Below, piece by piece: positions 24,611 through 47,979 of a stretch of DNA of 64,000 nucleotides. The position numbers and the translations under genes are program-made. Numbering within the stretch: position 1 is the first letter of the stretch; each line of letters starts with the position of its first letter. The notes under the pieces were generated by a model. That model saw nothing but the letters and a program-made list of their open reading frames with translations. It did no database searches and was not told the DNA's origin. Origin of the DNA: a virus; the IMG/VR virus record IMGVR_UViG_3300042558_005069, positions 40,100 through 104,099 of that record, one strand, 5' to 3'.

Positions 24611-25114
24611 TTATTTACCTTCCAGATTACGCATAATCTTCATAGCCATCCACGCTTCTTTTCTTTCAGTTTGTGTCCCAAAAGAATAAGTTCCGCCTAC
24701 TGACTTTAGCATTTCTCCGCAGCATGTAGAAGTAGCAGCAAGTTTATCGTCACTATTTGCAAGGAAAAGAAGAGCTCTTGCGTCTTTCGTTTTAATTTTA
24801 CTGCGAGCTTCTCCGACTGAAGTAAGGATTACGGCTTGCTCTAAAGATTTTTCTGGAATTTCTTTTTCTTTTGTTACAAAAGTCTTATACCAAGAACCAT
24901 TGACAACGTTCTTTGGTTTATCCCATAGAAAGCGATGAAACCGAGTCGTTCTAAATTTTTTGAGACCAGAAACTTTTGATGTTGTTGATATGAAGTTCAC
25001 TTTAATCGAAGACCCATTTTGTCTTTCTATAATTCCATCTTTTTCTCCAGGGCCAGCGTCTGTTATGTAATACAACTTGTCATTATGAATAGAGCCCACA
25101 AGTACAGCCTTCAC
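24611..25114 (-). CDS. Hypothetical head-region protein
   Basis: 167 residues, not recognised. It begins with a beta-rich segment (KAVLVGSIHNDKLYYITDAG) and has a helical C-terminus with a CC pair (TSTCCGEMLKSVGG). Its start overlaps the last bases of polyprotein B by four (ATGA), so it is translated in coupling with it. No catalytic motif or membrane segment is seen. Confidence 0.55.
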   Translation of the reverse strand: MKAVLVGSIHNDKLYYITDAGPGEKDGIIERQNGSSIKVNFISTTSKVSGLKKFRTTRFHRFLWDKPKNVVNGSWYKTFVTKEKEIPEKSLEQAVILTSVGEARSKIKTKDARALLFLANSDDKLAATSTCCGEMLKSVGGTYSFGTQTERKEAWMAMKIMRNLEGK

Positions 25115-31100: not shown

Positions 31101-32676
31101 TCATATTGACATTTATAGTTGCGTATATCGGCGCTCCACCCCTTCCCCCCCGGAATCCTGTCGAAGCTTCGTCGGTCGAGTTTGGGGTGTATTCTATTTT
31201 TTTGACGAATCTAGCTGCTGCTGGATTTTTAATAAATTGATCCAAAATTGATTCTAAAAAACCACGCTCTGTTTCGTAATATCTGCTCACGTCCGCTTCA
31301 AGCATTGCTTCTTTTTGTTTTGCATCAAGCCTTACCCAGTTGGGTATTTTTGCTAAACGCTCTTCCATTAATTGGCGAACCTGCAGGGGAGTAAGTCTTG
31401 TTGTGTCAAGCTCTATATCCCAGATACCGCGTTCCCGAAGGGCTTCAAAAGTGTTAACCAAGTCTTCGTTTACCAACCGAGAAGATTCAGATGTGTCTAC
31501 CCCTAGATCTCTTTGAAGTTGATTTACGCTAGCGTCCCTCGCGGCAGCAACTCGTTGAGCATTTGCCATTCCGTGCTTGAATAGCCGCATGTTTTCTGGG
31601 AGGTCGATCCCGGACCAGTCAGTACTGGGAATGCGCTCACCGGTGGCCATGTCATAGGAAACTGTTCTTCCTATTCTTGCTCTATCGATATCCTCTAAGG
31701 CGATAATCTCTTGTTGCAACTCAGGAAAGTCACTAAAATCAATTTGAGACCGAGAAGTTGGTCTAGTTTCTGAAGTATAAAGCCACCTGAAGAAACTGGA
31801 AGCTTTATTCCTGAATCCGCCAGTATCTTCCTGCTGTGAATCCGGATATAGATCTTGCGCTTGTCGTGCTGCGTATTTGGCAAATCTTGAACCACTGAAC
31901 CCAAAGCAATTGGATCCAAACATGTCGGTAAACTGATTTGCTGCCGGAGTTCCCGGAGGGCAGCGAAATTTATTTCTTTCATCCATCAGAACGCCAAAGC
32001 GACCTGAAAATCTTCTTATCAAAGACCCACCGGGGATCATACTTCCAAGAGAACGACCAGGAAGTTTTTTGGTCTGGATATCCGGACGCAGAATCTTCAA
32101 AGCGCTTAAAGCTTTTTGTCTTTCCTCAAATGTCATACCAGATATTTGAGCTAACTGATCTACTTTTTTTGCTGATTCGGGTTTTACCTGTCCCGTTTTT
32201 TTATCAACATCATAAATTGTTAACTGAATTGACGGTTTTCGTTTTTCCTCTTCAAGAATTTGTTGAAATGACAACTTGGGGGGATCATCCAACCAGCCCA
32301 TATTTGGCAACGTAGAAATACTGTTTTGCGAAACATTAGAAGGAAACAAAACAAGTCTTTTACCTGGTCCTCCTTTTGATGCTGTTTCAACGCGATGACC
32401 AGGAATTAGTTCTTTTACTCCTGGACGCGAGTCAGCGGTGAACTCTCGCTTTCTGTTGTCAGTATCCTCGTAAGCTTTCTTTCTTACTCCCGGGAACATG
32501 TCTGACAATGCTTTTGTTGCTACTCCAGCGTCTAACTTTTCAGATTTTACGGAAACAAGAACGGAAGATTTAAAAGCTGTTGCCCTTTCATCAATCGATT
32601 GACCGCAGCATTTTTGAGGAGCGACAAGACGCGAAGAGACAATTATTCTTTCTTTTTCAATGCTAATACCCGTCAT
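25111..32676 (-). CDS. Giant multidomain polyvalent polyprotein B
   Basis: About 2,521 residues from ATG 32676, which has AGAGG six bases upstream; an in-frame GTG at 32685 is the alternative. Recognisable parts in order: a paired-Cys module (RCPPGTP...GSNCFG, 238-258); a zincin with HEFAH at 593; a region near 1160-1195 (GDRGIFPG, then VMPPGSFRIIGRS) resembling ADP-ribosyltransferase toxins but with the usual ExE acidic pair degenerate; a ParB/sulfiredoxin-like module with DGHHRWAAY near 1860; and a C-terminal module (YYSRIGLPEEMSDEMLPVPG, then GDGLTALGDIEVVLKPQVS) that I recall from actinophage polyvalent proteins. FSSG occurs at residues 1313, 1453 and 2012, the last two flanking the ParB-like module. 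Position between prohead protease and capsid argues for virion loading. Overall function is inferred. Confidence 0.85.
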   Translation of the reverse strand: MTGISIEKERIIVSSRLVAPQKCCGQSIDERATAFKSSVLVSVKSEKLDAGVATKALSDMFPGVRKKAYEDTDNRKREFTADSRPGVKELIPGHRVETASKGGPGKRLVLFPSNVSQNSISTLPNMGWLDDPPKLSFQQILEEEKRKPSIQLTIYDVDKKTGQVKPESAKKVDQLAQISGMTFEERQKALSALKILRPDIQTKKLPGRSLGSMIPGGSLIRRFSGRFGVLMDERNKFRCPPGTPAANQFTDMFGSNCFGFSGSRFAKYAARQAQDLYPDSQQEDTGGFRNKASSFFRWLYTSETRPTSRSQIDFSDFPELQQEIIALEDIDRARIGRTVSYDMATGERIPSTDWSGIDLPENMRLFKHGMANAQRVAAARDASVNQLQRDLGVDTSESSRLVNEDLVNTFEALRERGIWDIELDTTRLTPLQVRQLMEERLAKIPNWVRLDAKQKEAMLEADVSRYYETERGFLESILDQFIKNPAAARFVKKIEYTPNSTDEASTGFRGGRGGAPIYATINVNMNRILSNQELMLPSLRPDQRLGVAAVGAATDAAGQEAVADFLVNSNHFAKRMAGLVGGPKTFAAFIGAHEFAHVYQGLAFLREAERKMQSPEGLDVPVYDRDNKFLGIKTVSSIEEMTGTDLFNLMDKMNDSIDVKDLDNALSKIENVRMLAGIYPDTYAGSERWGLEASAEIWGLREAGLVWGEDVDSALSFIDDAAARPSRVARVDSDVDADAADLASTAGAPSTQAGGVATPVSQMDADQLDEYLVNLASDMEATQEIEREQLKEYISNIANLSENEMIDEAALHSLNVDTIEEFSLKPLREQDILDDPNEDPRLTDLKRQHRDMLMSAWQKRSDINQKKYDDVKKAWRKKYGVGARGELERFDDDVVSARERAGLWTPDQARMAAQQLSLNELTDRAKDMSEDDILSEVVRSTRLFPSIEPGSTQALEIATGIEILKNEHVERSVKNGDKRSRARILRDLEEKIEETISPKPKPSKKFKKAQDVADFATAERARHRRSINKQQAAALREIADFEENPIALMLSPELQVQTGRAINRVTARRIRNNLAVNDSKSGQADLTAQVKNILLPALEAFDRSSASEGFEMEAIMEIAPGKTMGNSIGRIVEQDGFVSGVVSRSNAVIPAVSRADKKNEATLKNRVRVIIRVREGDRGIFPGQQDSGAQNFVMPPGSFRIIGRSDDGSLIVEAARQMDTVEVADRFVQTLTEGYDRGSARIVDDKIWRDGAVRKIRPVIDQAILDMRSSGRVVGPSSDDNSSIGETNSRINGDLADLDGYFGEGILADDGRFSSGAVRDDVLGSRESRQQRTRRRTKQISSDVNELRSVLAGRGSKKYPELSADSISPDVRDMLLSLSTAELQTKLDEIGYRFHSGLDRRVRVRMREADLEEFSRSGKFRSNMSAPGGSQIPGGRRVERLAAMGSSERSARFSSGAIQDSASLLERREIEKKTAAEALTIFDEIINSGKNVDDMTEGELTNLFQGRVKRTDRLAISERIEFVYEADNVQSALALMMAGHHVAVRYEDQTLTKQSQSQFEKLIKEGASAKIEAEHPDWLKFKQEFAKSNPQMDIGNDKDLKEAKRQYIEKWTADLCKLYNPEKNLLCSGHIGILREKMPQLNGRTFGNESLAIKMLVSGQAKGKWAYAGKKLKDITKLLPEQSNTENSEQYLSRLRSEGIDPEIINDYINATRYDRLSKMHPSKGGPQEPLGEEDKAWFYQNTNWQDTEVDLESEFMDFLEDVIKQPDGGNAVRRKEVVPSSYAPSQSQLVASKVDEINEAILSDSLNVVASMEKDGFQRGTPEFREEYIKRIFEEDDNGARKHWWTGAILATNDGFILDGHHRWAAYTVANRTLDEDMQIPLRVNEVQTDIIQGLTLGKVFQDVFGIKEARLGVENPWVKGEVAPATPEEVAMVKANLDETVGERIDELYDSGDFIQLGSVGLKNNPDYAEAARNRQRLAAERRPGPAARARQREIEEALEFESRDSANSFSSGRTTSITSAQRIRKSEAIVDAAISRTNVDKKTKESIKFALGLIDGSSERRLPRESIEQIGAEIARRSGNDIAKLALLEMADRGKINKNDIAEILGSIDYSADQNILPDQAQSIERAFKSALKALKESTDNAASEDIDTGRTGGPSRLAKVRRQMKRGSVSEERDVISGKNVGFAIDGITKEYYSRIGLPEEMSDEMLPVPGYVVHKSHIDAKKNKVKKNGVGNSLANAVFEVGDEDEIGDGLTALGDIEVVLKPQVSNRTAYSVGDSLTSGARPVRLNSTNREDISDAILGSTNKNSPSSNVETMLHMLAADKSNDLSIVNASFDEKSKMLTPDSNTLDATERKQIEAMVLGGFDMSEVEQINFPYSKISEMASSEKIEDVVNPTSIAERLRKAGFSDEEIQYFYSVNREGSLNTDAMRLLREYRTANKIKKDLGAKGFSKVKIAHPTGIDMDDPRSFYKGADSANSIESLLAERILNEITQQAKTMIKTMRDGKTPSLVGKKGGLL

Positions 32677-32690
32677 GGCGGGCACCTCTA

Positions 32691-34400
<1,710 letters not shown>

Positions 34401-34535
34401 ATGGCTCCTATTGTGTGGGTGAATGACCATCGGGACATTGACCTATAAACTGTGTGGCAAACTATAACGTATCACGTTCCGAGCCTTAAAATTAGCAACA
34501 TTCAATGGCTTTAAGAAAAATAGTTTTTATCTTCC

Positions 34536-37500
34536 TTATTTGTTGATTATTTCTGGCGAGGTTTTTCTTTTTCCCTTACGTCCAGGAGCAGAAGGCTTGT
34601 ACACCGTCGTGCCTTCCCTTAAGCGGGTCTGGGCATTCCTCAACTGCTCACCGCTGAAGATGTCTTCTATTGTGTGGTTTGTGCCAAATATTTTATTAAA
34701 TTGATCAACGAATTCCTGCAATTCGGACCTCGAGAATCTAGGCACGTCGCCTAATCTTTTTGAAAAAGTCTTACCTCTTCTTTTTGCGGCAGCCTGCAGT
34801 ACGGTCCCCATTTCCCTGCTATTGATAATAAATTGCCTACTTTGAACACTGTTAAGGCTTGAACCAGGGAATGACCTATCAATGAATTCTGTTAAAGCTT
34901 CATACACGTTGGCCTTGGATGCCAAAAGCTCCTCATCCAGCTTTTGGCCTGCCTTATTTACGCCGAATACATCGCGAGCATTCGGGATGACCCCAGTTCT
35001 GATCATTTCCGCAATATAGGCAATGGGTACTCCATCTTTTTTCCACTCTTTCACGGCGTCTTCACCAAGTCCAACGTCTACCTTCTTCACGTCGTCTGGA
35101 TCAAGTTCGGCGTCTACCTTCTTCACGTCGTCTGGATCAAGTTCGGCGTCTAAATCCTCTCCAAAAGCTTTTTCCAGGATTGGCTTAAGTTGCTTCGGCC
35201 ATTCATCTTCCGATATGCCGAGATGGTCAAGAAGTTGCGATAAAGTAAAATCTGCTCGCTGAACACGGCTACCCTTGCCTCTGCGGGCGTTGCTGGCAAT
35301 ATCAGGGGGAAGGGCCTCGAAAGCCTCGCCCATAGTTCCTTGATAGCTTAATTCTACCTCTGCCTCTGAGTCGTCCCTTGCGGCAGGAGAATTCTCGAAC
35401 TTGCCTACGGCGTTGAATCGTCTTGCTCCGTCCTCCAGGTCATCAAACTCTTCCGCGGTAAGCATCTTCCCTGACCCATAGATCTCCTCCTCGGCGATCC
35501 CCCCTATAAAGTCTCCCCTGTCGTGCCAGTATGGATAAGCGTCTGCTCCAAATGTTTCGATAATAAAACGATCTCTCATGTTTGCACGGCCGGTATTTTC
35601 GACGAGTCTTTCTATGGCGTTCATGCCTTCTTCTTCGGCTTCCATATCGGATACTGGAGAAAACAATCTCCACCCGCTAAATTCTGGCTGACTACCAATT
35701 TCGGCCAATAGATACCTTACGGTGTCGTGCGTGAGCGCAGCCGTATCGCCCTTAAGCTTTGCTTCTTCCGTAACGTTAAGTCCAAGGAGTTTTGCTAGTT
35801 TCGGGATGGTAAGCGGCTCTGACTGGGTCCAATATACCCCCACTTTGGGAGTAGCCACGTCCACGACCTCCTCCCCTTGTAGCTCCGAAGTTATAGTTCC
35901 TCTGGATATATCTTCTTGCCTGCGCCATCCAGTAGGGATTCTGACGGTGTCAAGTAGTTTGCTTATCGAAAGCATCCATGAATCACCGGAAGGATCATTG
36001 TTTGCAAAATTGTCGGTTGTTTTACCGATCTTAACGACTCTTGATCCGTCGCTTTGCTTTCTTGCTCGCATCCTTTCTCCGACTTTTATGATGTTGTCAT
36101 TAATTTTTTTTGCACGATCATTCTTCGATGTTGAATTTTGATCTGCTGGCATATCTAAGGCAATGCCTGTCTGATTGAAGGCGTTCCAGAATTGCATCGC
36201 ATAACGAGTTACTCTGTCTCTATCTTGAGGGTCAATGCGCACATCTGTACGTATTCCTGCGAGCTCTAGGGCAGATAGGCGCTGCTGCATTCCTGCCCTA
36301 TTCTCAAATCTGCTCACGCGTCTTCCGAACCTGCCCTCTGGAGTTCCAGTTATTTTTGAAGCCCTACTCGAACCTTTTGCTACATCAGGAGCTTCCTCGG
36401 ATGTTTCCGAAGGTTCCGCACCTGAAGAGAATCCAGCATCAAAATCTTCATCAAAATCATCATCATCATCATCTTCAGCCTCGATCGTGCTTATTTCGTC
36501 AAGCTCGTCAAGCACATTGTCAGCGTCGTCCACAGTCAGGTCCTCGTCTGAAATCCCCCGCCCGTCATCTTCTCCCTCTGGAAACTGAGCGGCTGGGTCA
36601 AACATTGGACCATCGATAATTTCGCGTGCTCGTTCTCTCATTATGCGGACGGAAGCATCACGTAACGTTTCTTCCGAAACATTTGCGTCGGCAAATTCAT
36701 CCATCACTTCTTTTCTTCGTTTGATGAACCCTTGTGTTGCTACGTCAGGTACGCCTATTCGTCTCATTTCAGCAATTAATTCATCATCCGGAAGACTCAG
36801 GACGCTTCTTCTTGAAGCGTTAAAATCGGTTAGGTCTTTCCCTTCCGCGGCATACTCTTCTATTTCTCTATACACTTTTGGCAATTTGTCGAGTGATAAT
36901 TCACTCTCTCTGTCAAAATCTTCTGGCAAAATTTTACGTTCGACACCGTCGCGAATGAGGTCTGCAATTTCTTTACGCTTTTGACCTTCGGCAAAGTGCG
37001 CCATCCACATTCTCGGTGATAGTGATATCGCTCTCATAGCCCTAGTTACGACCACGTGTTGAAGATTCATTTCTTCTATCCAGCCCGGAGGTCCCGAACC
37101 GTTGCGCTTAGCTGCTTCAAGAATGTCTACGTTTAAGTCATCGTCAGGATCTGTAAAGTCATCAAGCACCAGAACAAATTTTCCTTCTTTGCCTTTTGCT
37201 GTTGTTCCAGTTTGTATGACGACATCACCACCGCGTTTTTTTGCACTTTTGCGAACAGCATCACCAATGAGGTTTATTATTCTTGTAGCTTCTTCTGGGT
37301 CATCTTTTGCATCTATGACGAATCCGTCATAATCTCTGCCCTTTGCGCGGCTCACCTTCGGGCCAACTCCGAAGCTCAGTCTCGTCCTCGACTGAAGCCC
37401 TAGGCGATCAAGTATCCCTAAAGTGTCGGACAGGTATGCTCCATCGAAGTTCCTTCCGGAAGTATCCGGGTACTTGTTCGGATCTGCATATACCGCCTGA

Positions 37501-40500
37501 GGTCTTCCAGTATCGACTCCGTCACCAGAAAGAATTAATTTTCCAGTCCATTTAAATTGTTTAGTTGCATAAAAAGTTTCACGTGGATCTGTGCCCGTGT
37601 TTGATCTGCCAGCTGTAGCTGTCATAACAAGTTTATTTCGCATTCTTCGAAAAGCGATTTTTTCTAGTTCTTCTACCGTTTCAGCTTCTCCAAACTCAGC
37701 AATTGTCTCAAACTTTGGGGTTCCGTCAGCCTTTGTCCACTTCGATGTGACTCTTAATCTTTCTCCAGGCTGATCTGGTATTTTTTCTACAATAACCTGA
37801 AAGTCATCTGGGTTAATAGCATCTTGGCCGTCTTTGAAATCATATTCAAGTTCAAAATAAACAGCATCCTTGGTTCCTTTTGCATCAGGCTGTACAACAA
37901 ATATTTTTGTTGCGGCGTTAACATCTGATGATTTTGAACTCCTATCTGTACTTGACAGAATCTGACTAAGAGTTTTTTCTTCAAACTCCATCAAGCCTAG
38001 ATCAAGGCTGTCCCTCATTGGCCTGATGCTAGAAGAACGGTGCGACTTTGTCCCATCCGCAAGCACTACTCCGCCACCCCTTAGGGAAACAAGCATCTGG
38101 CTTGCAAACATTGTCTGAGATCCGGCTGGTTGTCCGTCTACTGGTTGAAACAACAATTGATACAATGAATTTCCTGGAGATTTTGATTTTAATTTAAATC
38201 TTTCTCTTATTGTTGCCATATCCCAATAATCTCCGATTAAAGGTGATTTTTCTGGTTTTCTTCCAGGGTTTAAACCGGCTGCAGTTTTTTCAGCCCAGTC
38301 AATATGTTGAAAGAAATCAACAGCTTCTTGCCATGCTGACTGAGTTAACATTATTTGAGGTTTGTCTTTTGAACTTAAAGGCTTAACGAGTTGATCAAAT
38401 TCATTTTGAGTTAGATTCTGGGAATCACGCAGTGTTTCTGGATTGTCGATTCTTCCGCCAAGGAAAACTGCACTTTCAAGGAATAAGTCTTTCCATGTTT
38501 GAACTGCTAAATGGACAGTTTGAACTTTTCCACGCGACAGAGCCATGTCTGGCAAATTACCAAAATAAACTTCTTCTTTTTCATCGACAACTCGAGTGCT
38601 TAAGGCTTTTGCAATTTTAGTTTTTGCGTCGTCTATTTCTTTTCTTAATTCAGTAAGCGCTTTTGCTCTTGCTTTTGGCGTCATTCCTGCAAAGTTTTCA
38701 CCGTTTAAATATGAATCAAAACTAACTCCATAAAGTCGCTTAACAGTATCGTTAACGCTGTTTGCTGCACCAAAATCGCCAGCTTTAACAAATGAAAAAA
38801 TATTTTCTATGTGTCGTTTAGCTGCCGTGTCAGCAGCCCCTTCAACGTATTTCCACTGCTCTGCAGTTAACGGTTTGCCTTCATCCAAGAGATCCTGAAG
38901 TAACTTATTTTCCCGACCAAGAATGAGCGTCGCCATGTACCCGAGAAGACTACCAAAGCGAAATGACTGTGTTAATTTCGGCACAAAATCGGGAGAAATT
39001 GACTGCATTATATTCTTTGAACCGTTGAAGCCAAGTATCTGCTGTCTGTCGTCGCCGACTGCTATTGTAGAAACTCTTTCTTTATTTCTGTTTAGTAATT
39101 CTTCCCAAACTTCATTAAGGTCTTGTGCTTCGTCGATCGCAAAAAGAGATATAGGTTTTTCTTTTGATGCGTATTGTTTTTTCAATTTGCCACGACTTCC
39201 ATCGATAGAGACCACAACCCATGGTTCTCCTTCCGATTTGTCCCATTGACGTATAGACGAAATTCTTCCAGTTTGCGGATCTATTACTTCATCATAAAAT
39301 TTATTATTTTTTCCATAATAGACAACATCGCCCCTGCGTATATTAAATTGTGCAGGTATTTTTTCATTCGCTAGGCTGTCTTTGCTTCCGTGCCCAAGAG
39401 CACCAGGATTTGTTGATAGATCCGGATCGGCGAGCAGTAGCAGTTTTGGCAACTGCCCCTGAGTTGGGAGCAACATGCCGTTTCCATCAACCAATTCATC
39501 TGCGGCTTTTTTGACATATGAAAGCCATTCATCCATCAGTTTATCTGGAACGTTTTGAAGTTGTTCATCGATTGCTTGTGTTTTTTTCTGTGCCTTTTTA
39601 GTTGAGAATCTGCCGGTCATCGTGTCAGTTTGCTCGCGGAAGCTTAGATTAAAAACATCTTTTGTGACTTCCGGGTTTGAAGACAATGACCACCTTCTGA
39701 ATGCCATTGCAAGGTATTCGCCAAAAAAGTCTACTTCGATCCAATTATTCCCGTCAGGCATGGTAAAAGGGACATCATACACTTCAATATTTTTAGTTTT
39801 TGCCTTTTTGCCTTTTCCTCTTGTAACGCTTATTGTTCTTCTGGGAAGACTCACACCAGCTTTTTCGAGAAATGCAAGCATGTCCTTGCCAGTTTCCACG
39901 GTTGAATAGCCAAGATCTTTGTAGTTAGGCCTGTATCCAATGAATTGCATACTCTCTGAGTCATGCTGTCTTCTTGCTTGGTCATAACCATCCACAGTTA
40001 TGGGTTGGTTTCTATTTTTAAACGATCTTCTTCTTGCATAGTCAGTTAGTAGTTCTATTTTTCTTCTCATCGACGGCGCATTTAATATTCTATTTTCCGG
40101 GCTGTCATTTTCTGCGATTCCTTGACGCAAGGACCAGTAAGCAAGCTGAGTAGTCGTTCCTATTCCTGTGTTCCCAGGAAATGATTCAGCTGCTTCTAGG
40201 CGGTTTTCTTTACCGAAAACCGTGTAGTAGATTGTCGGTTTATTATCTTCCGTTACTCCACGAGATTCTCCCAATTCCCTGATTGCTTGGATTAGGGTTT
40301 TTTCATCTGTGCTCTCTGGCCAAAAAACATCAACGTCTTCAAAACCTTTTGCTGGGTACTTAGCTGCAAGATAATTTGCTTTTTTTAGTAGCTGTTGCTT
40401 TCTAGTAACAGCATCTCCGGCAAATCTTTGTAGAATGTCATCAACGCTAAATTCAGCATTGATTGCTGCTGCGAGCATCTTCATTGTGGTTGTTTTACCG

Positions 40501-43500
40501 GAACCCGCTGCCGCATCAACTCCGATAACTAATTTTTCTTGACCGTATACAGCTGCTAATCCAAGATCAATAATGTCTCGCTGTTCATCCGTAGGAGGAA
40601 CAAGAAGATTAAGAAGAGACTTAACGTCTGTTGAAGCAGGAGTTCTTCTTACGGGTCTTTTTTTCGATCCACTACGAGCATTTATTGGATTTCCGCCACT
40701 GGCGAATCTTCCGTCGAGCGTAAGCGCCCTGCCCTGAGAGTCGGACACAGAGGCAATATCGCCATACATACGCTCTTCTTTTGACTGAGAGCCATATTTT
40801 CTTCTGTCTTTTGAAGAAGAAAGGTCTGAAGTGTCAGTAACGTCGTCCTCTTTGTCGAGGAAGGGAATTCCACTGGAGAAACGTTTGTCGATGTTGTCCG
40901 CTCTATCAATAAGGTCAATGTCTCCCATTGGGCCGCTGATTGGTCTGCTTGTTGGTACTTTTGGTGAATCCTCATACCCTTCTAACATTGAAAGCGGAAC
41001 GGTGTCTCTTGATGACTTTTTAGCTTTTCTTTCGTTATCCTCCATGCCCGATAGACGCCGCAATGTTTTGGATCTATTTAGCATCCAGTCAACGGCTTGC
41101 TGCGCTTGACCCATGGCAGTCTTGATAGCGTTTGGATCGTTTCTAATCTTTTCTGCCCAGAATTTTAGATATCCTATGTGATCTTCTCTAACCATGGGCG
41201 AAATGCCAAGCATTCCCAGCAAAAAGGAAGACCCAACTTCTGCTATGAGCTCCTCAAACGCGTACGCCGGTGACCCATATTTTGCAACTTGAGGTCTATT
41301 GTTCCGGCTTGGATGCCCAGTCCAGTGCGTCATTTCGTGCAATAGGGTTGAGTAATAACTTTCCGCATCATTAAACGTTTCGAACGGCGGCATATTTATG
41401 AAGTCGCCGTTTGGAGAGAAAAATGGCCCGCCAACATTTGACTCTCTTAATCTTGGATTTAATTCTTTAACTATCGCTTCTGCATTTTTAACACGAGCTT
41501 TTGGACTCAGGTTTTCCAGGTCGATTTCTGGCTTATACATTTCAGGAGGCAGACCATCAATATCCGCTACGTTATAGACTTCTTCAACTTTGTACTGACG
41601 TGGATCTGATCCAAGTATCGGAACTAAGATATTTACAGGACGAGCATTCGGCGATGCTTTCCCTTTAAATTTTTTCCATTGACTTATCCCTGCCCATTTA
41701 TTGGTTTCGTAACCACGTGATACCGCTATGGAGTTTAACAACATACGGTTGGTCCCCTGGTAGGACCAGCTTTTTTGACCTTGGTTCTTCTTTGTTGGGT
41801 TTCGGGGGTTGTGCTCCCCTTCTCTCCATGGCATATTCCATTTGAATTTTTCTGGATTATTTACAGCTTCTTGAAGCATTTCAAGAATTTGTTTGCCAAT
41901 TTGAGCGTAGTATTCATCGATTACGGCTCTGCCCTCAGCTGTTGCCGTATCTACTATGTCGCCAGGCTTTAGAGAATTATTACCGTCTCCTCCTGAAGAA
42001 AACTTTCCAGTAGAAGAAACTTGGTTAAAAAAGCCATCGAACTTAAACCGCTCATCTATGGTTTTGTCGCTTTCGCGTTTTCTTAGAAAATCCAAATAGT
42101 TTTTGTTTTTTGCCTGAGCCTGCTTCCTGGCCGCAGACATAGATCTACTTATCTCTTTTTTTGGTTTTGCTGTTACTATTTCCCGCGAACCACTGCCTAG
42201 CGGCCGAGCTTCTGTTCCCGCTACCGAGGAGCGCTCTGGGGCTTCAATTTTACCGGGGACTTTTGGATTATTGATTGAGCCTGGACCGTCTGGTGTTGGG
42301 TCGGGCTGCTCAAGAGAAGTACCACGAAGGAATATACCTTCGCCCACAATCCCATTGAGGTTGCGGTCAATAGCTGTCCTTGGATCAAAATTCTCAGCAT
42401 TTGGGGTCGAGAAAAATCTACCTGCAGATCTTGCTCCCCCGATGCCGGGTTTATTATTGGCTCTACTTCCTATGGCTCTTCCGAGCCTGTAGGCGGATAC
42501 CTTAAATTCTAGATCGTCACTGATTAAACTTTTTTTTTTTAAATTATCTAAAGCTGTATCGATAGCGTCAATCAACTCATAAGAAACACCATTTGTTATT
42601 ACTATTCCTTCTGGGTCAACATACGTATCTACCTTATGGTAGTCAAATACTGGATCTAACGCTTGCTTTACGTGAAAAGCATAATCTGTGGATACTGGCA
42701 GGAAATACGGCTTTTCTGGTTCAAAAGAATCTTCAAACGTACCGAACTCGGCTAGATGTTTGAATTTCCGCTTTTTTCTTCTTTTTCTTTTTACTATTCC
42801 ACGCAGTCCGGCAATAAACAGCTCTCCTGGATACTTGAACTCAAAGTCAGCAATATATTCGTTTTCGTTATCCTCTGTCTCGAATTCGTATTCTTTTTTG
42901 GCCATAAAGTCGCCTTTTACAACACCTGGTGGGATTATGGCAAAGCGACACTTCCCTTCAGGCTCTATTGCCATGTCGATAATCTGGCAGCTGTTGTCCT
43001 TGTTATAAAAAACGCAGTTTGAGCATTTAACCCCAATTCCAGCAACTGGATTTTGTGCAGCTGGTTTGTAGCCTGCCCAAATTCCATCAGAATCTTCGTT
43101 TATTTTTCCGTGACGCTTTACGATCTTTAGTAGTGCGTCTCTGAGGTCTGACTCTTCTTGATCCAGGTCATCGGCACTAATTGGCTTGCGGCTCTGCCCT
43201 TCGTACTGCACTGCTGGTAGGGGTACCACCGTCATTCCGTTTGGCCCTGGCTTTATGGCAATGGGAATCGATGGCATCTGGCTCGGACGAACAACCCTCT
43301 GAGGATCTACCGGAGGCAACCCGCCAACAGGCATAACTGGAGGTGAAGTTTGAGGCTTAGCAACGATCACTATTCTTTCTGGAGCGCCAAACATAAAGCG
43401 GCCATTGCCACCTCTGGAAAAATGACATTTATACTTTTCCATTGAATTTGACTGGTCTGTTCTGTTGAAGGAGACCATTCCGTTGTCTTCGTCAACTTCC

Positions 43501-44159
43501 GTCACAGAGACTTGATTTCCAAGAACTTTTTGCAATTCTATTTCTAGCTCATCGCTCATGGATGGACGTTGCTGAACCATAGGGCCGGAAGGGCTCTCGA
43601 CGTCGTAAGTTCCTGGCATCCCTGCTTTTACCGAAATAGTGCCTGTTAGTTGATTTGCTCCGTGGAGAACTGGGCTAACTTCGTAGAGTTCAAGCTCGTA
43701 GATTACGTTTGCTTGAGATTTTTGGTCAAATTGAGCTCTAAGAGTTTTGTAGCCTATTGACCACTCTTGGTCTTCGCCAAAAAAAGCAACATTAGCGAAT
43801 GCTTCTTTGCCCTTTTCTGAATTTAAATTAAACTGGACACGGGCAAAAAGTCCTCCTATGCCAGCCATTTTCATTTTCATTGGCAGTCTTGGATCGGTGG
43901 ACGGAACTTCGTATATCTCTAGAACTTTGCCAATCGGGTCATTCCAGTTATGACCCCACACCACACGAGGCTTGCGCCGCATCAGGCTTTTGGTAAATGC
44001 TCCGCTCTGAACGATATCGCCAACAGAATCTTTGTTCCCTATTCCGGAAACGAAGCACTCGACCATGCCTTGAGCCTCGTCAAGATTCAGTACGCCGGAT
44101 TTTCCGTTGACAACGGACGACATTGAACCAGCTTTATATTCAAAAGAATTTCCGGACAT
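34536..44159 (-). CDS. Giant polyprotein C: prohead protease fused to ArdC-like and SF1-helicase modules
   Basis: 3,207 residues; AAGGTG lies five bases before ATG 44159. Residues 1-180 are an HK97-type (S78/U35) prohead protease: VVWGHNWNDPIGK with His70, EWSIGYKT with Ser134, and ELYEVSPVLHGAN. A four-Cys cluster follows (Cys379, 382, 391, 404; CSNC...GKCRFAIIPPG) and an EF-hand-like AIDRNLNGIVGEG. FSSG at 720 begins an ArdC-like unit: a single-strand-DNA-binding region (MPWREGEHNPRNP, YQGTNRMLLN) and a zincin LLHEMTHWTGH near 939. FSSG at 1094 and FASG at 1152 precede an SF1/UvrD-like helicase: Walker A GSGKTTT (Lys1222), DEAQD (1676-1680), VGDDRQQILGFNG, and motif VI VTRAMRAI near 2370. 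FSSG at 2577 starts an unknown C-terminal region with a 12-residue tandem repeat. Portal and capsid flank it, so the protease assignment is firm. Confidence 0.92.
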   Translation of the reverse strand: MSGNSFEYKAGSMSSVVNGKSGVLNLDEAQGMVECFVSGIGNKDSVGDIVQSGAFTKSLMRRKPRVVWGHNWNDPIGKVLEIYEVPSTDPRLPMKMKMAGIGGLFARVQFNLNSEKGKEAFANVAFFGEDQEWSIGYKTLRAQFDQKSQANVIYELELYEVSPVLHGANQLTGTISVKAGMPGTYDVESPSGPMVQQRPSMSDELEIELQKVLGNQVSVTEVDEDNGMVSFNRTDQSNSMEKYKCHFSRGGNGRFMFGAPERIVIVAKPQTSPPVMPVGGLPPVDPQRVVRPSQMPSIPIAIKPGPNGMTVVPLPAVQYEGQSRKPISADDLDQEESDLRDALLKIVKRHGKINEDSDGIWAGYKPAAQNPVAGIGVKCSNCVFYNKDNSCQIIDMAIEPEGKCRFAIIPPGVVKGDFMAKKEYEFETEDNENEYIADFEFKYPGELFIAGLRGIVKRKRRKKRKFKHLAEFGTFEDSFEPEKPYFLPVSTDYAFHVKQALDPVFDYHKVDTYVDPEGIVITNGVSYELIDAIDTALDNLKKKSLISDDLEFKVSAYRLGRAIGSRANNKPGIGGARSAGRFFSTPNAENFDPRTAIDRNLNGIVGEGIFLRGTSLEQPDPTPDGPGSINNPKVPGKIEAPERSSVAGTEARPLGSGSREIVTAKPKKEISRSMSAARKQAQAKNKNYLDFLRKRESDKTIDERFKFDGFFNQVSSTGKFSSGGDGNNSLKPGDIVDTATAEGRAVIDEYYAQIGKQILEMLQEAVNNPEKFKWNMPWREGEHNPRNPTKKNQGQKSWSYQGTNRMLLNSIAVSRGYETNKWAGISQWKKFKGKASPNARPVNILVPILGSDPRQYKVEEVYNVADIDGLPPEMYKPEIDLENLSPKARVKNAEAIVKELNPRLRESNVGGPFFSPNGDFINMPPFETFNDAESYYSTLLHEMTHWTGHPSRNNRPQVAKYGSPAYAFEELIAEVGSSFLLGMLGISPMVREDHIGYLKFWAEKIRNDPNAIKTAMGQAQQAVDWMLNRSKTLRRLSGMEDNERKAKKSSRDTVPLSMLEGYEDSPKVPTSRPISGPMGDIDLIDRADNIDKRFSSGIPFLDKEDDVTDTSDLSSSKDRRKYGSQSKEERMYGDIASVSDSQGRALTLDGRFASGGNPINARSGSKKRPVRRTPASTDVKSLLNLLVPPTDEQRDIIDLGLAAVYGQEKLVIGVDAAAGSGKTTTMKMLAAAINAEFSVDDILQRFAGDAVTRKQQLLKKANYLAAKYPAKGFEDVDVFWPESTDEKTLIQAIRELGESRGVTEDNKPTIYYTVFGKENRLEAAESFPGNTGIGTTTQLAYWSLRQGIAENDSPENRILNAPSMRRKIELLTDYARRRSFKNRNQPITVDGYDQARRQHDSESMQFIGYRPNYKDLGYSTVETGKDMLAFLEKAGVSLPRRTISVTRGKGKKAKTKNIEVYDVPFTMPDGNNWIEVDFFGEYLAMAFRRWSLSSNPEVTKDVFNLSFREQTDTMTGRFSTKKAQKKTQAIDEQLQNVPDKLMDEWLSYVKKAADELVDGNGMLLPTQGQLPKLLLLADPDLSTNPGALGHGSKDSLANEKIPAQFNIRRGDVVYYGKNNKFYDEVIDPQTGRISSIRQWDKSEGEPWVVVSIDGSRGKLKKQYASKEKPISLFAIDEAQDLNEVWEELLNRNKERVSTIAVGDDRQQILGFNGSKNIMQSISPDFVPKLTQSFRFGSLLGYMATLILGRENKLLQDLLDEGKPLTAEQWKYVEGAADTAAKRHIENIFSFVKAGDFGAANSVNDTVKRLYGVSFDSYLNGENFAGMTPKARAKALTELRKEIDDAKTKIAKALSTRVVDEKEEVYFGNLPDMALSRGKVQTVHLAVQTWKDLFLESAVFLGGRIDNPETLRDSQNLTQNEFDQLVKPLSSKDKPQIMLTQSAWQEAVDFFQHIDWAEKTAAGLNPGRKPEKSPLIGDYWDMATIRERFKLKSKSPGNSLYQLLFQPVDGQPAGSQTMFASQMLVSLRGGGVVLADGTKSHRSSSIRPMRDSLDLGLMEFEEKTLSQILSSTDRSSKSSDVNAATKIFVVQPDAKGTKDAVYFELEYDFKDGQDAINPDDFQVIVEKIPDQPGERLRVTSKWTKADGTPKFETIAEFGEAETVEELEKIAFRRMRNKLVMTATAGRSNTGTDPRETFYATKQFKWTGKLILSGDGVDTGRPQAVYADPNKYPDTSGRNFDGAYLSDTLGILDRLGLQSRTRLSFGVGPKVSRAKGRDYDGFVIDAKDDPEEATRIINLIGDAVRKSAKKRGGDVVIQTGTTAKGKEGKFVLVLDDFTDPDDDLNVDILEAAKRNGSGPPGWIEEMNLQHVVVTRAMRAISLSPRMWMAHFAEGQKRKEIADLIRDGVERKILPEDFDRESELSLDKLPKVYREIEEYAAEGKDLTDFNASRRSVLSLPDDELIAEMRRIGVPDVATQGFIKRRKEVMDEFADANVSEETLRDASVRIMRERAREIIDGPMFDPAAQFPEGEDDGRGISDEDLTVDDADNVLDELDEISTIEAEDDDDDDFDEDFDAGFSSGAEPSETSEEAPDVAKGSSRASKITGTPEGRFGRRVSRFENRAGMQQRLSALELAGIRTDVRIDPQDRDRVTRYAMQFWNAFNQTGIALDMPADQNSTSKNDRAKKINDNIIKVGERMRARKQSDGSRVVKIGKTTDNFANNDPSGDSWMLSISKLLDTVRIPTGWRRQEDISRGTITSELQGEEVVDVATPKVGVYWTQSEPLTIPKLAKLLGLNVTEEAKLKGDTAALTHDTVRYLLAEIGSQPEFSGWRLFSPVSDMEAEEEGMNAIERLVENTGRANMRDRFIIETFGADAYPYWHDRGDFIGGIAEEEIYGSGKMLTAEEFDDLEDGARRFNAVGKFENSPAARDDSEAEVELSYQGTMGEAFEALPPDIASNARRGKGSRVQRADFTLSQLLDHLGISEDEWPKQLKPILEKAFGEDLDAELDPDDVKKVDAELDPDDVKKVDVGLGEDAVKEWKKDGVPIAYIAEMIRTGVIPNARDVFGVNKAGQKLDEELLASKANVYEALTEFIDRSFPGSSLNSVQSRQFIINSREMGTVLQAAAKRRGKTFSKRLGDVPRFSRSELQEFVDQFNKIFGTNHTIEDIFSGEQLRNAQTRLREGTTVYKPSAPGRKGKRKTSPEIINK
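35075..35146. repeat. 36-bp perfect tandem duplication
   Basis: Two identical 36-base units, 35075-35110 and 35111-35146, lie in the C-terminal part of polyprotein C. In frame they encode AELDPDDVKKVD twice. The copies are exact, so the duplication is probably recent. Confidence 0.95.
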
Positions 44160-44223
44160 TTAAGCACCTTTTCTCGTCTAATGAGATGATAGGTTAAATT
44201 GCTAATCTGAAACGGAAAGTATT

Positions 44224-44251
44224 GTTATATTTTTTAAAGAAATAATATAAA
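44224..44251 (-). promoter_or_regulatory. Candidate promoter upstream of polyprotein C
   Basis: In the 96-base gap between portal and polyprotein C, reading leftward: -35-like TTTATA (complement of 44246-44251), 16-base spacer, -10-like TATAAC (complement of 44224-44229). The region is very AT-rich, so chance matches are likely. The leader would be about 58 bases. Confidence 0.3.
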
Positions 44252-44255
44252 GAAA

Positions 44256-46358
44256 CTATACTGTTTGAGCAAAAAGCCAGACCGATCGAGCTTCTGATTC
44301 AGCTATCTCAAACTGATCATGAGCAAGAAGGTTGGCATACATCTCTCCAATTCCTTGCCTAAACGCTCTGAGTCTTTCTTCTTCGTTTGAAAAATCAAAA
44401 GACTTAATCATCAGATTGTATATTTCTGAAGATATATCGCTGTTAAGAGATTTTATTTTCATCAGGTGAGACTCGATAGTTTTTACAACATCAATTGTCG
44501 GAATGGACTTAACTTTAATCCCATTTTCTGATTTAAATTCTTTTCGTGAATCGAAAGAATCATTAATGATCGATGTGAGCACGGGCTTTATGTCGTCTTC
44601 CATCTGTCTATTCCAAACATCAACAGCCAGTACCTGCTCAATATCGAGAGTCCCAGCAGAAAGGGCTTTTTTGGCTTTTGCTCCAGAAGATTTCTCCATG
44701 ACAACTCTTTGCTGACGCTCTAGCAGTCTTTCGATACTGCGAGCTAGTATCTCCGACCATCTCTCGATGGCTGTTTGACATTTTTCATCGTATGTCTCGC
44801 TGAGCGATTTTGTCTCGATGGAGGCTTGACGTTCCCCCGCTGTTGCCATTTGCTGCTGCGGCATCCCCTGCGTGATTGCTTCCGATGGGATTGTAGTCTG
44901 AGCCAAATCGCCAGCTGGAGGAGTTGCCTGCCCGGCCATGGATTCGGCGATTGCCCCTTGCATAGTGTTTGGATCGAGCGGAGGAGGTGCTCCTTCCATC
45001 CCTGGCTGTCCTGGCATACCTGGGGGCATCCCTGGCATACCTGGGGGCATACCTGGCATACCTGGGGGCTGTCCTGGCATACCTTGCTGCTCCCCCATCA
45101 TCGCCTGATTTTCTTCCATTTTTTTCTTTGTGTTGGCAATTGGAATAAGATTTGGATTCATAAGCAAAGAGTCAGCGAGGTCTGCTTCTACTTCTTTTCT
45201 TGAAGAGCCGGTCCGGTATTCGTTTGCACTGATTAATCCAGTCTGAAATTCCTGGAGCAAATACCTGTCTCGCTCCTGCTTGTAGAGCATTAGGATTGGA
45301 ACTTCGGAGGTGTCGAAGTCTAAATAGTACTTATCGTCTAACTCGTCTAGCCCCCGAGCGAGTGGCTCTAAATGTGGAAGCATTGTTTCCATCCAGAAAA
45401 CACGGATTTCTTCTGCGGCATTGCTAAAAGTACGACCGGACGCATTTCCGATAACAGACTCAGGAACTCCGAAAGCTGAAAGAATTTCTTCTTTTGTTAT
45501 TTGTCGCATTTGTATGTATGCGGCGTCTCTGGGACTTGCAGATGTGTCGACAAAATCAACACCATCGTCTGATGAGATTACGGTTGTGTGACCGGCTTTA
45601 GACAAGTTTCCCCTAAATCTATTACGTAGCTCTTCTTTGTCATCGTCATCTATTTCTCCTCTTACTACGAGAAGACCGCCAGGTCTTCCATCGTTAAGTA
45701 AATAGTTCCTATTGTAAAGTTTTGCTAAGTTTTCTATTTCTATTGCCACCCCAGAAGCTTCAAGTGGAGTCAGTGAAAGATAAGGGTCAAGGGGGTGAGG
45801 TCTACGAATCCAGCAGACGTCGTCTGGCTTCATAATAACCTTGTCTCCGGTTGGCATCATGACTTCATAGCCTGAAACAAAAGTTTTTGGGTGAGGAATC
45901 GGAGATGTGGATTGTGGCGGAAGAAGGTTTAGGGCGACAATTCCTCCATCGCGGCCACGAATTTTCTCTATAAACGCTCCTCGCGTTCCGAGAAGAAGCT
46001 GAGCTGAAAGCCTGTATCTGAAAATAAAAGAGTTTTCGCCTATGTTTGATTTTGTGTTCAGAAGCTCAAGGAGGGTTGATCTTTTGGCTTCTCTGCCAAC
46101 AACCAGTTCACCCATATTGGAGTTATCTTTACGCAAAACTATAGGTAGTCGCGCTTGGTTTCCTGCGATCGCATCAATGCATCGATTAACCCAGGTTATC
46201 TTAGACATTCCCTCGCGGTATGCGCGCTCTATGTCCCACGAGTCCCTGTATGGCTTTCCTGCAAATGAGGGATTCATCGAAACGGGAGCGCCGTATACAC
46301 CTAACTCTTTAGAGCTAGTGCTTTTAATTGATTTGTTTTGTGGTGTATTCCAGCCCAT
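44256..46358 (-). CDS. Portal protein
   Basis: 700 residues. The dodecameric portal forms the DNA entry ring and binds the terminase. The N-terminal half is typical of HK97-family portals: ITWVNRCIDAIAGNQARLP, then LNLLPPQSTSPIPH, PDDVCWIRRPHPLDPYLSLT, and FGVPESVIGNASGRTFSNAAE, a hallmark clip/stem region. Residues 410-460 hold a Pro-Gly-Met repeat region (PGMPGMPPGMPG). The C-terminal 200 residues are helical and resemble the extended tails of some actinophage portals. It opens the leftward head block, back to back with the large terminase gene. Confidence 0.92.
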   Translation of the reverse strand: MGWNTPQNKSIKSTSSKELGVYGAPVSMNPSFAGKPYRDSWDIERAYREGMSKITWVNRCIDAIAGNQARLPIVLRKDNSNMGELVVGREAKRSTLLELLNTKSNIGENSFIFRYRLSAQLLLGTRGAFIEKIRGRDGGIVALNLLPPQSTSPIPHPKTFVSGYEVMMPTGDKVIMKPDDVCWIRRPHPLDPYLSLTPLEASGVAIEIENLAKLYNRNYLLNDGRPGGLLVVRGEIDDDDKEELRNRFRGNLSKAGHTTVISSDDGVDFVDTSASPRDAAYIQMRQITKEEILSAFGVPESVIGNASGRTFSNAAEEIRVFWMETMLPHLEPLARGLDELDDKYYLDFDTSEVPILMLYKQERDRYLLQEFQTGLISANEYRTGSSRKEVEADLADSLLMNPNLIPIANTKKKMEENQAMMGEQQGMPGQPPGMPGMPPGMPGMPPGMPGQPGMEGAPPPLDPNTMQGAIAESMAGQATPPAGDLAQTTIPSEAITQGMPQQQMATAGERQASIETKSLSETYDEKCQTAIERWSEILARSIERLLERQQRVVMEKSSGAKAKKALSAGTLDIEQVLAVDVWNRQMEDDIKPVLTSIINDSFDSRKEFKSENGIKVKSIPTIDVVKTIESHLMKIKSLNSDISSEIYNLMIKSFDFSNEEERLRAFRQGIGEMYANLLAHDQFEIAESEARSVWLFAQTV
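45011..45083. repeat. 21-bp tandem repeat in the portal gene
   Basis: About three and a half units of 21 bases (CTGGCATACCTGGGGGCATN-type) encode the collagen-like PGMPGMP repeat of the portal protein. Units differ by one to three bases. It marks a flexible surface segment and a likely length-variable site. Confidence 0.85.
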
Positions 46359-46366
46359 AATTTTAT

Positions 46367-46585: not shown

Positions 46586-46639
46586 ATAACATACAGTAGC
46601 GCACAATTTTGTCGCAGGAACAACTAAAGGTCTTTTACA

Positions 46640-47953
46640 ATGGATAATAAACCCAATTGGGCGGAGGTCCTCGAATACCTTCAACCTAAGGAACCTCCAT
46701 TTTGCCCCGAGGAACCCTCTATTAACCAAAAAGTATTTCTTCGCACGAACGCTCTAGAAGCGTTGTTCGGGGGAGCGGCTGGCGGTGGAAAAAGTTCAGC
46801 ATTGCTAATGGCAGCATTGCAGTACGTTGACGTACCTGGATATTCTGCACTTCTTTGCCGTCGTACATTTGCCGACTTATCGCTCCCTGGAGCATTGATG
46901 GACCGTTTTAAGTCATGGATGAGCAACTATGACGATATCCATTGGAATAACAACACTTTTATTGCTACGTTTCCATCGGGAGCAAGAATATCCTTCGGTT
47001 ACCTCAATAATGTCAACGATTATCTTAGATATAAGGGTTCGGAATTTCAGTTCATAGGGATGGACGAAGTTACGGAAATACGTGAATCTGACTACAGGTA
47101 TTTGTTTTCTCGCCTCCGTCGCCCAGCTAACGGTCCAGTTTCGCAAGTCCCACTAAGAATGCGATGTGCGTCAAACCCTGCTCCAAACTGGGTGCGTCAA
47201 AGATTTATAGTTGAAGGAAAAGAAACAAATAGAATTTTTGTACCCTCTACGCTGAAGGACAACCCAGGAATTGACGCCGACTCGTACAGGCAGTCATTGT
47301 CCGCACTCGACCCCGTTGAGCGGCGAAGACTGGAAGAAGGAGACTGGTGGTCTACGACTCTTGGCACAATGTTTGACAGAACATCATTTGAGATAATAGA
47401 CCCAATTGACATCCCGATAATAACCAGCGCAGCAAGAGTGGTTCGTTTTTGGGACCTTGCAGCTACGGAACCAAGTGCCTCAAACCCTGACCCAGACTGG
47501 ACTGTCGGCACTTTAATGCTTTTCAATGGCGGCGTAGCTTATGTTTTGGACGTAAGGAGAGCAAGAGTTCGGGGAGAAAAAGTAGAACAATTAATTTCTC
47601 AGACATCAATAGAAGATGGGCATGGGGTAGCGATACGCATGGAACAAGAACCAGGCTCCTCCGGAAAAGCATTGCTGGATCAATACGCTAGATACGTAGT
47701 TCCTGGCTACGATTTCGGCGCTGTACGCGCTACGGGGGACAAAGTGACCCGCGCTAGACCATTCGCTGCAGCGGTAGCCAATGGAAACGTTCGGTTAGTT
47801 CGAGGTCCGTGGATAACTGGATGGCTTGATGAATTTGCCTCTTTCCCGGAAGCCTGCGACCACGACGACCAAGTCGACTCGGCTGTTGGAGCATTTACTC
47901 ATTTAACGGGCCTTGGGTTGCCACAGAGAAAACGAGCATCTATACTCATCTAG
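46640..47953 (+). CDS. Terminase large subunit
   Basis: 437 residues. The packaging motor: an N-terminal ATPase pumps DNA and a C-terminal RNase-H-fold nuclease cuts it. Walker A is GGAAGGGKS (44-52), Walker B ends FIGMDEVTE with catalytic Asp142-Glu143, followed by the coupling motif CASNPAP. VPSTLKDNPG and LEEGDWW are typical of the terminase-6 family. The nuclease begins VVRFWDLAATEPS, with the acidic metal ligand, and includes a later EQEPGSSGKA and the final CDHDDQVDS. The ribosome site is AAAGG eight bases upstream. It heads the rightward recombination operon and is divergent from the portal. Confidence 0.95.
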   Translation: MDNKPNWAEVLEYLQPKEPPFCPEEPSINQKVFLRTNALEALFGGAAGGGKSSALLMAALQYVDVPGYSALLCRRTFADLSLPGALMDRFKSWMSNYDDIHWNNNTFIATFPSGARISFGYLNNVNDYLRYKGSEFQFIGMDEVTEIRESDYRYLFSRLRRPANGPVSQVPLRMRCASNPAPNWVRQRFIVEGKETNRIFVPSTLKDNPGIDADSYRQSLSALDPVERRRLEEGDWWSTTLGTMFDRTSFEIIDPIDIPIITSAARVVRFWDLAATEPSASNPDPDWTVGTLMLFNGGVAYVLDVRRARVRGEKVEQLISQTSIEDGHGVAIRMEQEPGSSGKALLDQYARYVVPGYDFGAVRATGDKVTRARPFAAAVANGNVRLVRGPWITGWLDEFASFPEACDHDDQVDSAVGAFTHLTGLGLPQRKRASILI

Positions 47954-47979
47954 CAAATAACTAAACAAAAGGGGTATTA

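What the first reader, a model, noticed from the sequence alone, without database searches (positions are those of the whole stretch)
34536..44159. Prohead protease fused to a 3,207-residue chain with ArdC-like and helicase modules
Seen: His70/Ser134-type prohead protease at the N-terminus, in one uninterrupted frame with an ArdC-like single-strand-binding/zincin unit and a full-length SF1 helicase. Known: prohead proteases are normally about 200 residues and act inside the immature head; ArdC counters restriction of incoming DNA. Inference: the protease carries its cargo into the head and releases it by self-processing, so anti-restriction and helicase enzymes arrive with the DNA.
Basis: partly seen in the sequence, partly recalled or inferred. 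Interest (0 to 1): 0.93.

Follow-up and report, generated by a model that had tools for sequence, protein, structure and literature searches.

The report
Capsid protease heading a phage polyprotein
In a widespread group of uncultured phages, the only detectable enzyme for maturing the virus head is made as the front end of a giant protein that also carries anti-restriction and helicase modules, and a short, genome-specific amino-acid "cut here" tag separates the modules, which suggests that a DNA phage makes its injected proteins as a self-cut polyprotein.

Summary
The 3,207-aa frame is real: it was found 100% identical in other IMG/VR contigs, and the S78 protease + ArdC-N/zincin + SF1 helicase + C-terminal module architecture is conserved in 23 non-redundant relatives (34-53% identity).

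Three linkers between modules carry a repeated tag, [RK]-[LF]-[SA]-S-G. In the 23 relatives it occurs 173 times against 9.8 expected; every order of the residues other than the tag itself and its near-synonym gives 5-28. The tag also fills two other giant ORFs of this phage and the tape measure. In other genomes it changes to a different dialect (SLSSG, GLRSS, GLASRR, GMRSM, GLSSG), and it changes together across unrelated ORFs (permutation p about 5e-5). This looks like a protease site read by one trans-acting enzyme. S78 is the best candidate: it was found once per genome in the nine searched, and several tagged S78 ORFs contain no HExxH.

The closest known concepts are polyvalent proteins and phiKZ/T4-type head processing. 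An S78-headed polyprotein with co-switching sites was not found in the papers searched. Cleavage, the identity of the cutter, and ejection are inferred; no experiment was possible.

The parts
34536..44159 (-). 3,207-aa S78-headed polyprotein ORF
43638..44069 (-). Peptidase_S78 (HK97-type prohead protease), residues 31-174; invariant His70 and Ser134
42264..43544 (-). Conserved region 206-632 with invariant Cys (245, 379, 382, 391, 404), function unknown
   Evidence: AF2 model poor
42315..42392 (-). Leader-like tag, residues 590-615 (NFDPRTAIDRNLNGIVGEG), EF-hand-like loop that recurs just before the first tag/cut-type site in many giant ORFs
41991..42002 (-). Linker tag 1, residues 720-723, (K)FSSG
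41640..41915 (-). ArdC-N domain, residues 749-840
41115..41486 (-). MPTase-PolyVal zincin, residues 892-1015 (HEMTH)
40869..40880 (-). Linker tag 2, residues 1094-1097, (R)FSSG
40695..40706 (-). Linker tag 3, residues 1152-1155, (R)FASG
36990..40601 (-). SF1 (UvrD-like) helicase module, residues about 1187-2390: Walker A 1213-1223, DEAQD about 1676, GDDRQ about 1702, VVVTRAM about 2370
   Evidence: sequence
36420..36431 (-). Linker tag 4, residues 2577-2580, (G)FSSG
34590..36272 (-). C-terminal module D, residues 2630-3190; mainly helical AF2 model (pLDDT 77.8), no structural match
32691..34430 (-). 579-aa acidic scaffold-like gene; its C-terminus resembles the C-terminus of the S78 protease of Gordonia phage GMA6
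   Evidence: read by eye
25111..32685 (-). 2,524-aa giant ORF, HExxH at about residue 597, FSSG tags at residues 1316, 1456, 2015
28729..28740 (-). FSSG tag in the 2,524-aa ORF, residues 1316-1319
28309..28320 (-). FSSG tag in the 2,524-aa ORF, residues 1456-1459
26632..26643 (-). FSSG tag in the 2,524-aa ORF, residues 2015-2018
1..8188 (-). N-terminal 2,729 residues of a 4,564-aa giant ORF that runs out of the window; 14 tags in the whole ORF, bracketing GNAT, ParB-associated and DnaQ-type exonuclease domains
61296..64000 (+). Tape-measure-like protein (truncated by the window end; identified by sequence character only), tag at residue 36 (KRFASG) and at 594, 647
   Evidence: no Pfam/PHROG hit
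18923..20308 (-). HK97-fold major capsid protein with an N-terminal delta-like arm
20018..20026 (-). MCP residues 95-97, L-T-S, near the expected delta cut; conserved as L-[ST]-S in SSG-dialect relatives
44256..46358 (-). Portal protein, directly upstream of the polyprotein
46640..47953 (+). Terminase large subunit

Best explanation
The phage makes its only detectable capsid-maturation protease (HK97 type, S78) as the first module of a polyprotein. The rest of the chain is cargo for the next infection: an ArdC-type ssDNA-binding/zincin unit, an SF1 helicase and a C-terminal module. Because the S78 part and a leader segment sit where relatives keep protease plus scaffold, the chain is built into the prohead core. 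At maturation S78 cuts itself and two other giant cargo chains (4,564 and 2,524 aa) in trans at short [LFM]-x-S-x tags in the linkers (here [RK]-F-[SA]-S-G), releasing about 80, 42, 159 and 70 kDa products plus a 6 kDa spacer. These stay in the head and enter the host with the DNA. Shown: the conserved fusion, single-copy S78 in nine genomes, tag enrichment, linker location, and dialect sharing across unrelated ORFs. Inferred: that the tags are cut, that S78 does it, and that the products are packaged and ejected.
For: Conserved fusion. S78 once per genome in G000 and eight others, always at the head of the giant frame. Tags: 173 observed against 9.75 +/- 3.1 in local shuffles. Residue-order controls other than the near-identical [LFIM]S[SA]G give 5-28, and 167 of 173 sites fall in three linkers that hold 22% of residues. 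Different codons encode the same peptide, so selection is on the protein. The tag is dense only in giant ORFs (1.85-3.0 per kaa against 0.05-0.6) and brackets GNAT and exonuclease domains in the 4,564-aa ORF. Dialects co-switch: a matrix learned on the S78 ORF predicts the other giant ORFs of the same genome (p about 5e-5), and R/K at -1 and F at 0 cluster by genome (p 1e-4, 0.002). Tagged S78 ORFs without any HExxH, e.g. L303, L300, L256, L228. The MCP arm carries L-[ST]-S in SSG-dialect genomes and GLGSQ in a GLRSS genome. Cultured relatives have S78 fused to a scaffold-like tail; a homologous tail follows as a separate gene here. Precedent: T4 gp21 and phiKZ/SPN3US proteases cut MCP, themselves and ejection proteins at short motifs (PMC5694885, PMC7411985).
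Against: No proteomics or assay. The MCP has no exact LSSG, and two genomes (G040, G025) show no clear MCP site. S78 is very similar (about 80-95% by eye) across dialects, so few residues would have to set the specificity. The tape measure, not a head-interior protein, also has the tag. Most genomes with a tagged S78 ORF lacking HExxH encode an HExxH in another giant ORF, so a trans-acting zincin is not excluded. Marine relatives with stand-alone S78 have giant ORFs without tag enrichment.
Confidence: 0.62

Rival explanations
1. The tags are cut by the zincin metallopeptidase (MPTase-PolyVal) and not by S78, in the virion or after ejection, as proposed for polyvalent proteins in general.
For: Each of the three giant ORFs here contains at least one HExxH; Iyer et al. 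propose MPTase autoprocessing (PMC5512222); the tag is also in the tape measure, which enters the cell.
Against: Complete S78-headed ORFs with 6-14 tag-like sites contain no HExxH at all (L228, L235, L245, L256, L261, L293, L300, L303). A genome-wide shared dialect needs one reader, whereas zincins differ between ORFs. S78 is the one constant component.
Confidence: 0.17
2. The tags are not cut; they are docking motifs that bind a scaffold, capsid or chaperone partner and pull the chains into the virion.
For: Short, repeated, genome-specific motif shared across ORFs.
Against: Sites sit at nearly every module boundary rather than once per chain, and a separate leader-like tag already recurs once per giant ORF upstream of the first site. 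The tape measure carries the tag as well.
Confidence: 0.12
3. The chain is packaged unprocessed, like N4 virion RNA polymerase, and the tags are just flexible spacers.
For: N4 vRNAP is packaged as an unprocessed protein (PMC5512222).
Against: Order-specific enrichment over shuffles and permuted motifs and co-switching dialects are not expected of spacers.
Confidence: 0.07
4. The fusion is an assembly or sequencing artefact joining separate genes.
For: None; 3 of 80 loci show frameshift-like breaks.
Against: Identical ORF in other contigs and conserved architecture in 23 non-redundant relatives.
Confidence: 0.01

Closest known systems
Polyvalent proteins of phages and conjugative elements (Iyer et al. 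2017, PMC5512222)
   Same: Large multidomain chain near virion genes, with ArdC-N, MPTase zincin and helicase modules; predicted delivery with DNA and autoprocessing by an embedded peptidase
   Different: [quoted passage not shown] here the phage's own prohead protease is N-terminal. No repeated linker tags, no genome-specific dialect and no sharing across ORFs was found in the sections read
phiKZ/SPN3US/T4 head-protease processing of ejection proteins (PMC5694885, PMC7411985, PMC10052503)
   Same: A prohead protease cuts MCP, itself and ejected internal proteins at a short motif (A-X-E in SPN3US; T4 and phiKZ also cut after Glu)
   Different: There the protease is a separate small protein that removes propeptides; here it would head the polyprotein, S78 rather than S80/gp21 type, with a Ser-centred motif and cuts between enzyme modules
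S78 proteases of cultured actinobacterial phages (Gordonia GMA6, Gray, DalanDe; Brevibacterium Cantare; Streptomyces Gilgamesh)
   Same: Homologous S78 (38-43% identity in the first four, 36% in Gilgamesh) with an acidic scaffold-like tail. Gilgamesh gp52 has a NUDIX domain between S78 and the tail; DalanDe gp27 is a 1,633-aa fusion
   Different: 417-1,633 aa; no tag enrichment; cargo such as ART and RNA ligase in separate genes in GMA6 and Gray
Polyproteins of eukaryotic RNA viruses
   Same: Works-like comparison: one chain with an embedded protease and repeated cognate sites between modules
   Different: No homology; dsDNA phage, structural and ejected cargo rather than the whole proteome

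Membership tests
HK97-type prohead protease (Peptidase_S78) | Profile match over the curated cut-off | tested here: met
   Pfam 42 bits against 21; NCBIfam proheadase_HK97 is below its equivalog cut-off, 50.9 against 59
HK97-type prohead protease (Peptidase_S78) | Catalytic His and Ser conserved | tested here: met
   His70 and Ser134 invariant in 23 sequences
HK97-type prohead protease (Peptidase_S78) | Gene lies in the portal-protease-MCP cluster and is the only such protease | tested here: met
HK97-type prohead protease (Peptidase_S78) | Short (about 200 aa) or protease-scaffold protein | tested here: not met
   3,207 aa; relatives 2,874-3,837 aa
Polyvalent protein | Several biochemically disparate domains in one chain, encoded among virion genes | tested here: met
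Polyvalent protein | Injected with DNA | not testable with these tools
   needs virion and ejection proteomics
Polyvalent protein | Assemblin-like peptidase, when present, at the C terminus | tested here: not met
   S78 at residues 31-174 of 3,207; statement in PMC5512222
ArdC anti-restriction | ArdC-N followed by zincin with HExxH and a distal Glu | tested here: met
   HEMTH and AFEEL in sequence
ArdC anti-restriction | Protects incoming DNA from restriction | not testable with these tools
   no assay
SF1 UvrD-like helicase | Motifs I, II, III and VI in order | tested here: met
   Pfam UvrD over cut-off; AGSGKTTT, DEAQD, GDDRQ, VVVTRAM by eye; motif V weak in this copy
Protease-processed polyprotein | Repeated cognate sites between modules, recognised by a common protease | tested here: inconclusive
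   sites and dialect sharing shown; cleavage itself not testable

The most novel reading that the evidence does not exclude
A dsDNA phage lineage uses an RNA-virus-like polyprotein strategy: its only capsid-maturation protease heads the main chain, and a genome-specific [LFM]-x-S-x password, which switches in concert across unrelated cargo ORFs, the tape measure and in part the capsid protein, directs one protease to release all ejected proteins.
Probability: 0.55. Interest if true: 0.92.

Novelty: new variant of a known kind. Interest (0 to 1): 0.84.

Why it matters
If true, head maturation, cargo loading and cargo release are coupled in one gene product, and the sequence itself tells where each injected protein starts and ends. 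That would allow the ejected arsenal of uncultured phages to be read out from genomes: find the S78 ORF, learn its dialect, and cut every other giant ORF at that tag. Dialects also offer natural protease/site pairs for testing specificity, and a modular route to load enzymes into capsids.

Tried and rejected
Artefact: rejected. Tags as DNA repeats or recombination hot spots: rejected, different codons encode the same peptide. Tags as a composition effect: rejected (shuffles, permuted orders). Exact LSSG in the MCP: absent; only L-[ST]-S at about residue 95. AlphaFold2 of residues 1-632: too poor to use (pLDDT 51), probably because the protease alignment is too uniform. Module D: acceptable model (77.8) but no PDB or viral match with E <= 0.001. 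No PDB relative of S78 by sequence. Host: no usable link; the genome-contig hits are MAG contigs of unrelated phyla, probably phage contamination; the closest cultured S78s are from actinobacterial phages. Specificity residues: 141/143, just after Ser134, appear basic in SSG dialects and not in others, but this is by eye and confounded by descent. Literature: no paper found on S78-headed polyproteins or such tags (open-licence papers only).

Full report
1. Observation. The ORF at 34536-44159 (-) is one open frame of 3,207 codons. It holds Peptidase_S78 (31-174), ArdC-N (749-840), a zincin (892-1015) and an SF1/UvrD-like helicase (about 1187-2390). The window is part of a 104,099-bp IMG/VR virus record, in which S78 occurs once. 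The full protein is identical in three more contigs with other sample numbers, and partial copies in two more.

2. Family. In the best 80 loci the protease sits at the N-terminus of an ORF that, where complete, is nearly always 2,874-3,458 aa, and longer in some further loci; three loci have frameshift-like breaks. 23 non-redundant members are 34-53% identical to the window's overall, with the protease at about 94% majority identity. Module D was found in 59 contigs; most of the 47 checked have it in one frame with zincin, helicase and protease, and the exceptions are cut off by a contig end or not resolved.

3. The linker tag. Reading the linkers showed GKFSSG, KRFSSG, GRFASG and GFSSG at residues 720, 1094, 1152 and 2577. 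In the 23 relatives [LFIM][SA]SG occurs 173 times; block shuffles give 9.75 +/- 3.1, maximum 19. Other orders of the same residues give 5-28, except the overlapping [LFIM]S[SA]G (159); 167 of 173 lie in three zones holding 22% of residues (the zones were set after seeing the sites, so that p-value is only descriptive). The zones are the gaps between S78/Cys region and ArdC, zincin and helicase, helicase and module D. Flanks are unconserved and codons differ.

4. Not one ORF but a system. The genome has two more giant ORFs, 4,564 and 2,524 aa. They carry 14 and 3 tags, and the tape-measure-like ORF has three; the rest of the proteome has few. In the 4,564-aa ORF tags bracket a GNAT domain, a ParB-associated domain and a DnaQ-type exonuclease. 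Eleven other genomes of the group look the same: 1.85-3.0 tags per 1,000 aa in ORFs of at least 1,200 aa, 0.05-0.6 elsewhere.

5. Dialects. The window genome uses mainly F, G013 uses S/A/G-L-S-S-G without R or K, and most use [RK]LSSG; these preferences cluster by genome across unrelated ORFs (p 0.002 for F, 1e-4 for R/K). More distant S78-headed ORFs use GLRSS (G023), [ST]LRSSG (G025), G[LF]ASRR (G033), GMRS[MRS] (G031, G039), GLSSG (G024) and GLASS (G043). Over 22 genomes a matrix trained only on the S78 ORF fits the other giant ORFs of its own genome better than chance (p about 5e-5, mean rank 4.7 of 22). Caveats: the wider pattern [LFM][SARPT]S[GRSMNKH] was chosen after looking at some of these genomes, and genomes are related, so p-values are optimistic. 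Still, concerted change over many sites in unrelated ORFs calls for one common reader. A tag at the start of the tape measure (residue about 36) follows the dialect in several genomes (KRFASG, RRLSSG, SGMRSS, LGLASS).

6. Who reads it? S78 is the constant partner: once per genome in nine searched. Complete tagged S78 ORFs exist with no HExxH, although most of those genomes encode one elsewhere. The MCP arm has invariant L-[ST]-S near residue 95, where an HK97 delta domain would be cut, in the SSG-dialect genomes, and GLGSQ in GLRSS genome G023; two others show nothing clear. Marine relatives with stand-alone S78 (436-448 aa) lack tag enrichment in their giant ORFs. I put S78 at about 0.7 given cleavage, and cleavage at about 0.85.

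7. How cargo gets in. In cultured Gordonia GMA6, Gray and Brevibacterium Cantare, S78 is fused to an acidic scaffold-like tail; the GMA6 tail's C-terminus resembles that of the window's next gene, 32691-34430 (by eye). So cargo appears inserted between protease and scaffold. Cultured Gilgamesh gp52 (S78-NUDIX-acidic tail) and DalanDe gp27 (1,633 aa) are smaller cases of S78 fusion. A leader-like module (DP.[DN]xDGW.DEGTT.P and variants) recurs upstream of the first tag in S78 ORFs and near the N-terminus of the other cargo ORF, almost identical within genomes G005 and G009. I read it as a possible prohead-targeting leader, comparable in role to T4 capsid-targeting sequences (PMC7411985); this is inference.

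8. Known against new. Polyvalent proteins with ArdC, MPTase and helicase, and their delivery with DNA, are known predictions; that survey found the assemblin-like peptidase only at C termini (PMC5512222). Head-protease trimming of ejected proteins at short motifs is known from T4, phiKZ and SPN3US (PMC5694885, PMC7411985, PMC10052503). New here: the phage's own S78 as the head of the chain, modules separated by repeated tags, and tags that co-switch across the genome. I found no description of this in the papers held. Because both halves have precedents I rate it a new variant of a known kind.

Noticed in passing
window 1-8188 (-), continuing outside; G000 34593-48287: 4,564-aa ORF with GNAT, ParB-associated, DnaQ-type exonuclease, HExxH and a weak DUF3626-like C-terminus, with tags between the domains.
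   Followed up: partly
window 42315-42392 (-) and residue 77 of the 4,564-aa ORF: EF-hand-like leader module (e.g. SRRDPDGDGWADEGTTKP) shared by unrelated giant ORFs, nearly identical within genomes G005 and G009: possible prohead-targeting leader.
   Followed up: partly
window 61296-64000 (+): Tape-measure-like protein has the tag at residue 36, conserved in place and following the genome's dialect in relatives, although it is not a head-interior protein.
   Followed up: partly
window 21961-23976 (-) and 25111-32685 (-): A motif RCP.G......FTD.....C recurs in the 671-aa and 2,524-aa proteins; meaning unknown.
   Followed up: no
window 16949-17944 (-): 331-aa protein with the look of a TauD-type dioxygenase, by eye only, among head genes next to the capsid gene.
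   Followed up: no
window 33562-34395 (+): 277-aa serine-rich ORF antisense to the acidic gene; probably an artefact of the Glu/Met-rich coding strand.
   Followed up: no
L347 11950-13875; L348 2608-7509: Cultured phages with S78 fused to cargo: Streptomyces phage Gilgamesh gp52 (S78-NUDIX, annotated 'hydrolase') and Gordonia phage DalanDe gp27 (1,633 aa).
   Followed up: partly
S78 residues 141 and 143 (window about 43731-43739): Residues just after Ser134 are basic in SSG-dialect genomes (R.Q or N.K) and not in other dialects; possible specificity determinants, confounded by descent.
   Followed up: partly
L042, L024, L079: Three relatives have the frame broken after 286-548 aa with the sequence resuming in another frame; probably sequencing errors.
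   Followed up: partly
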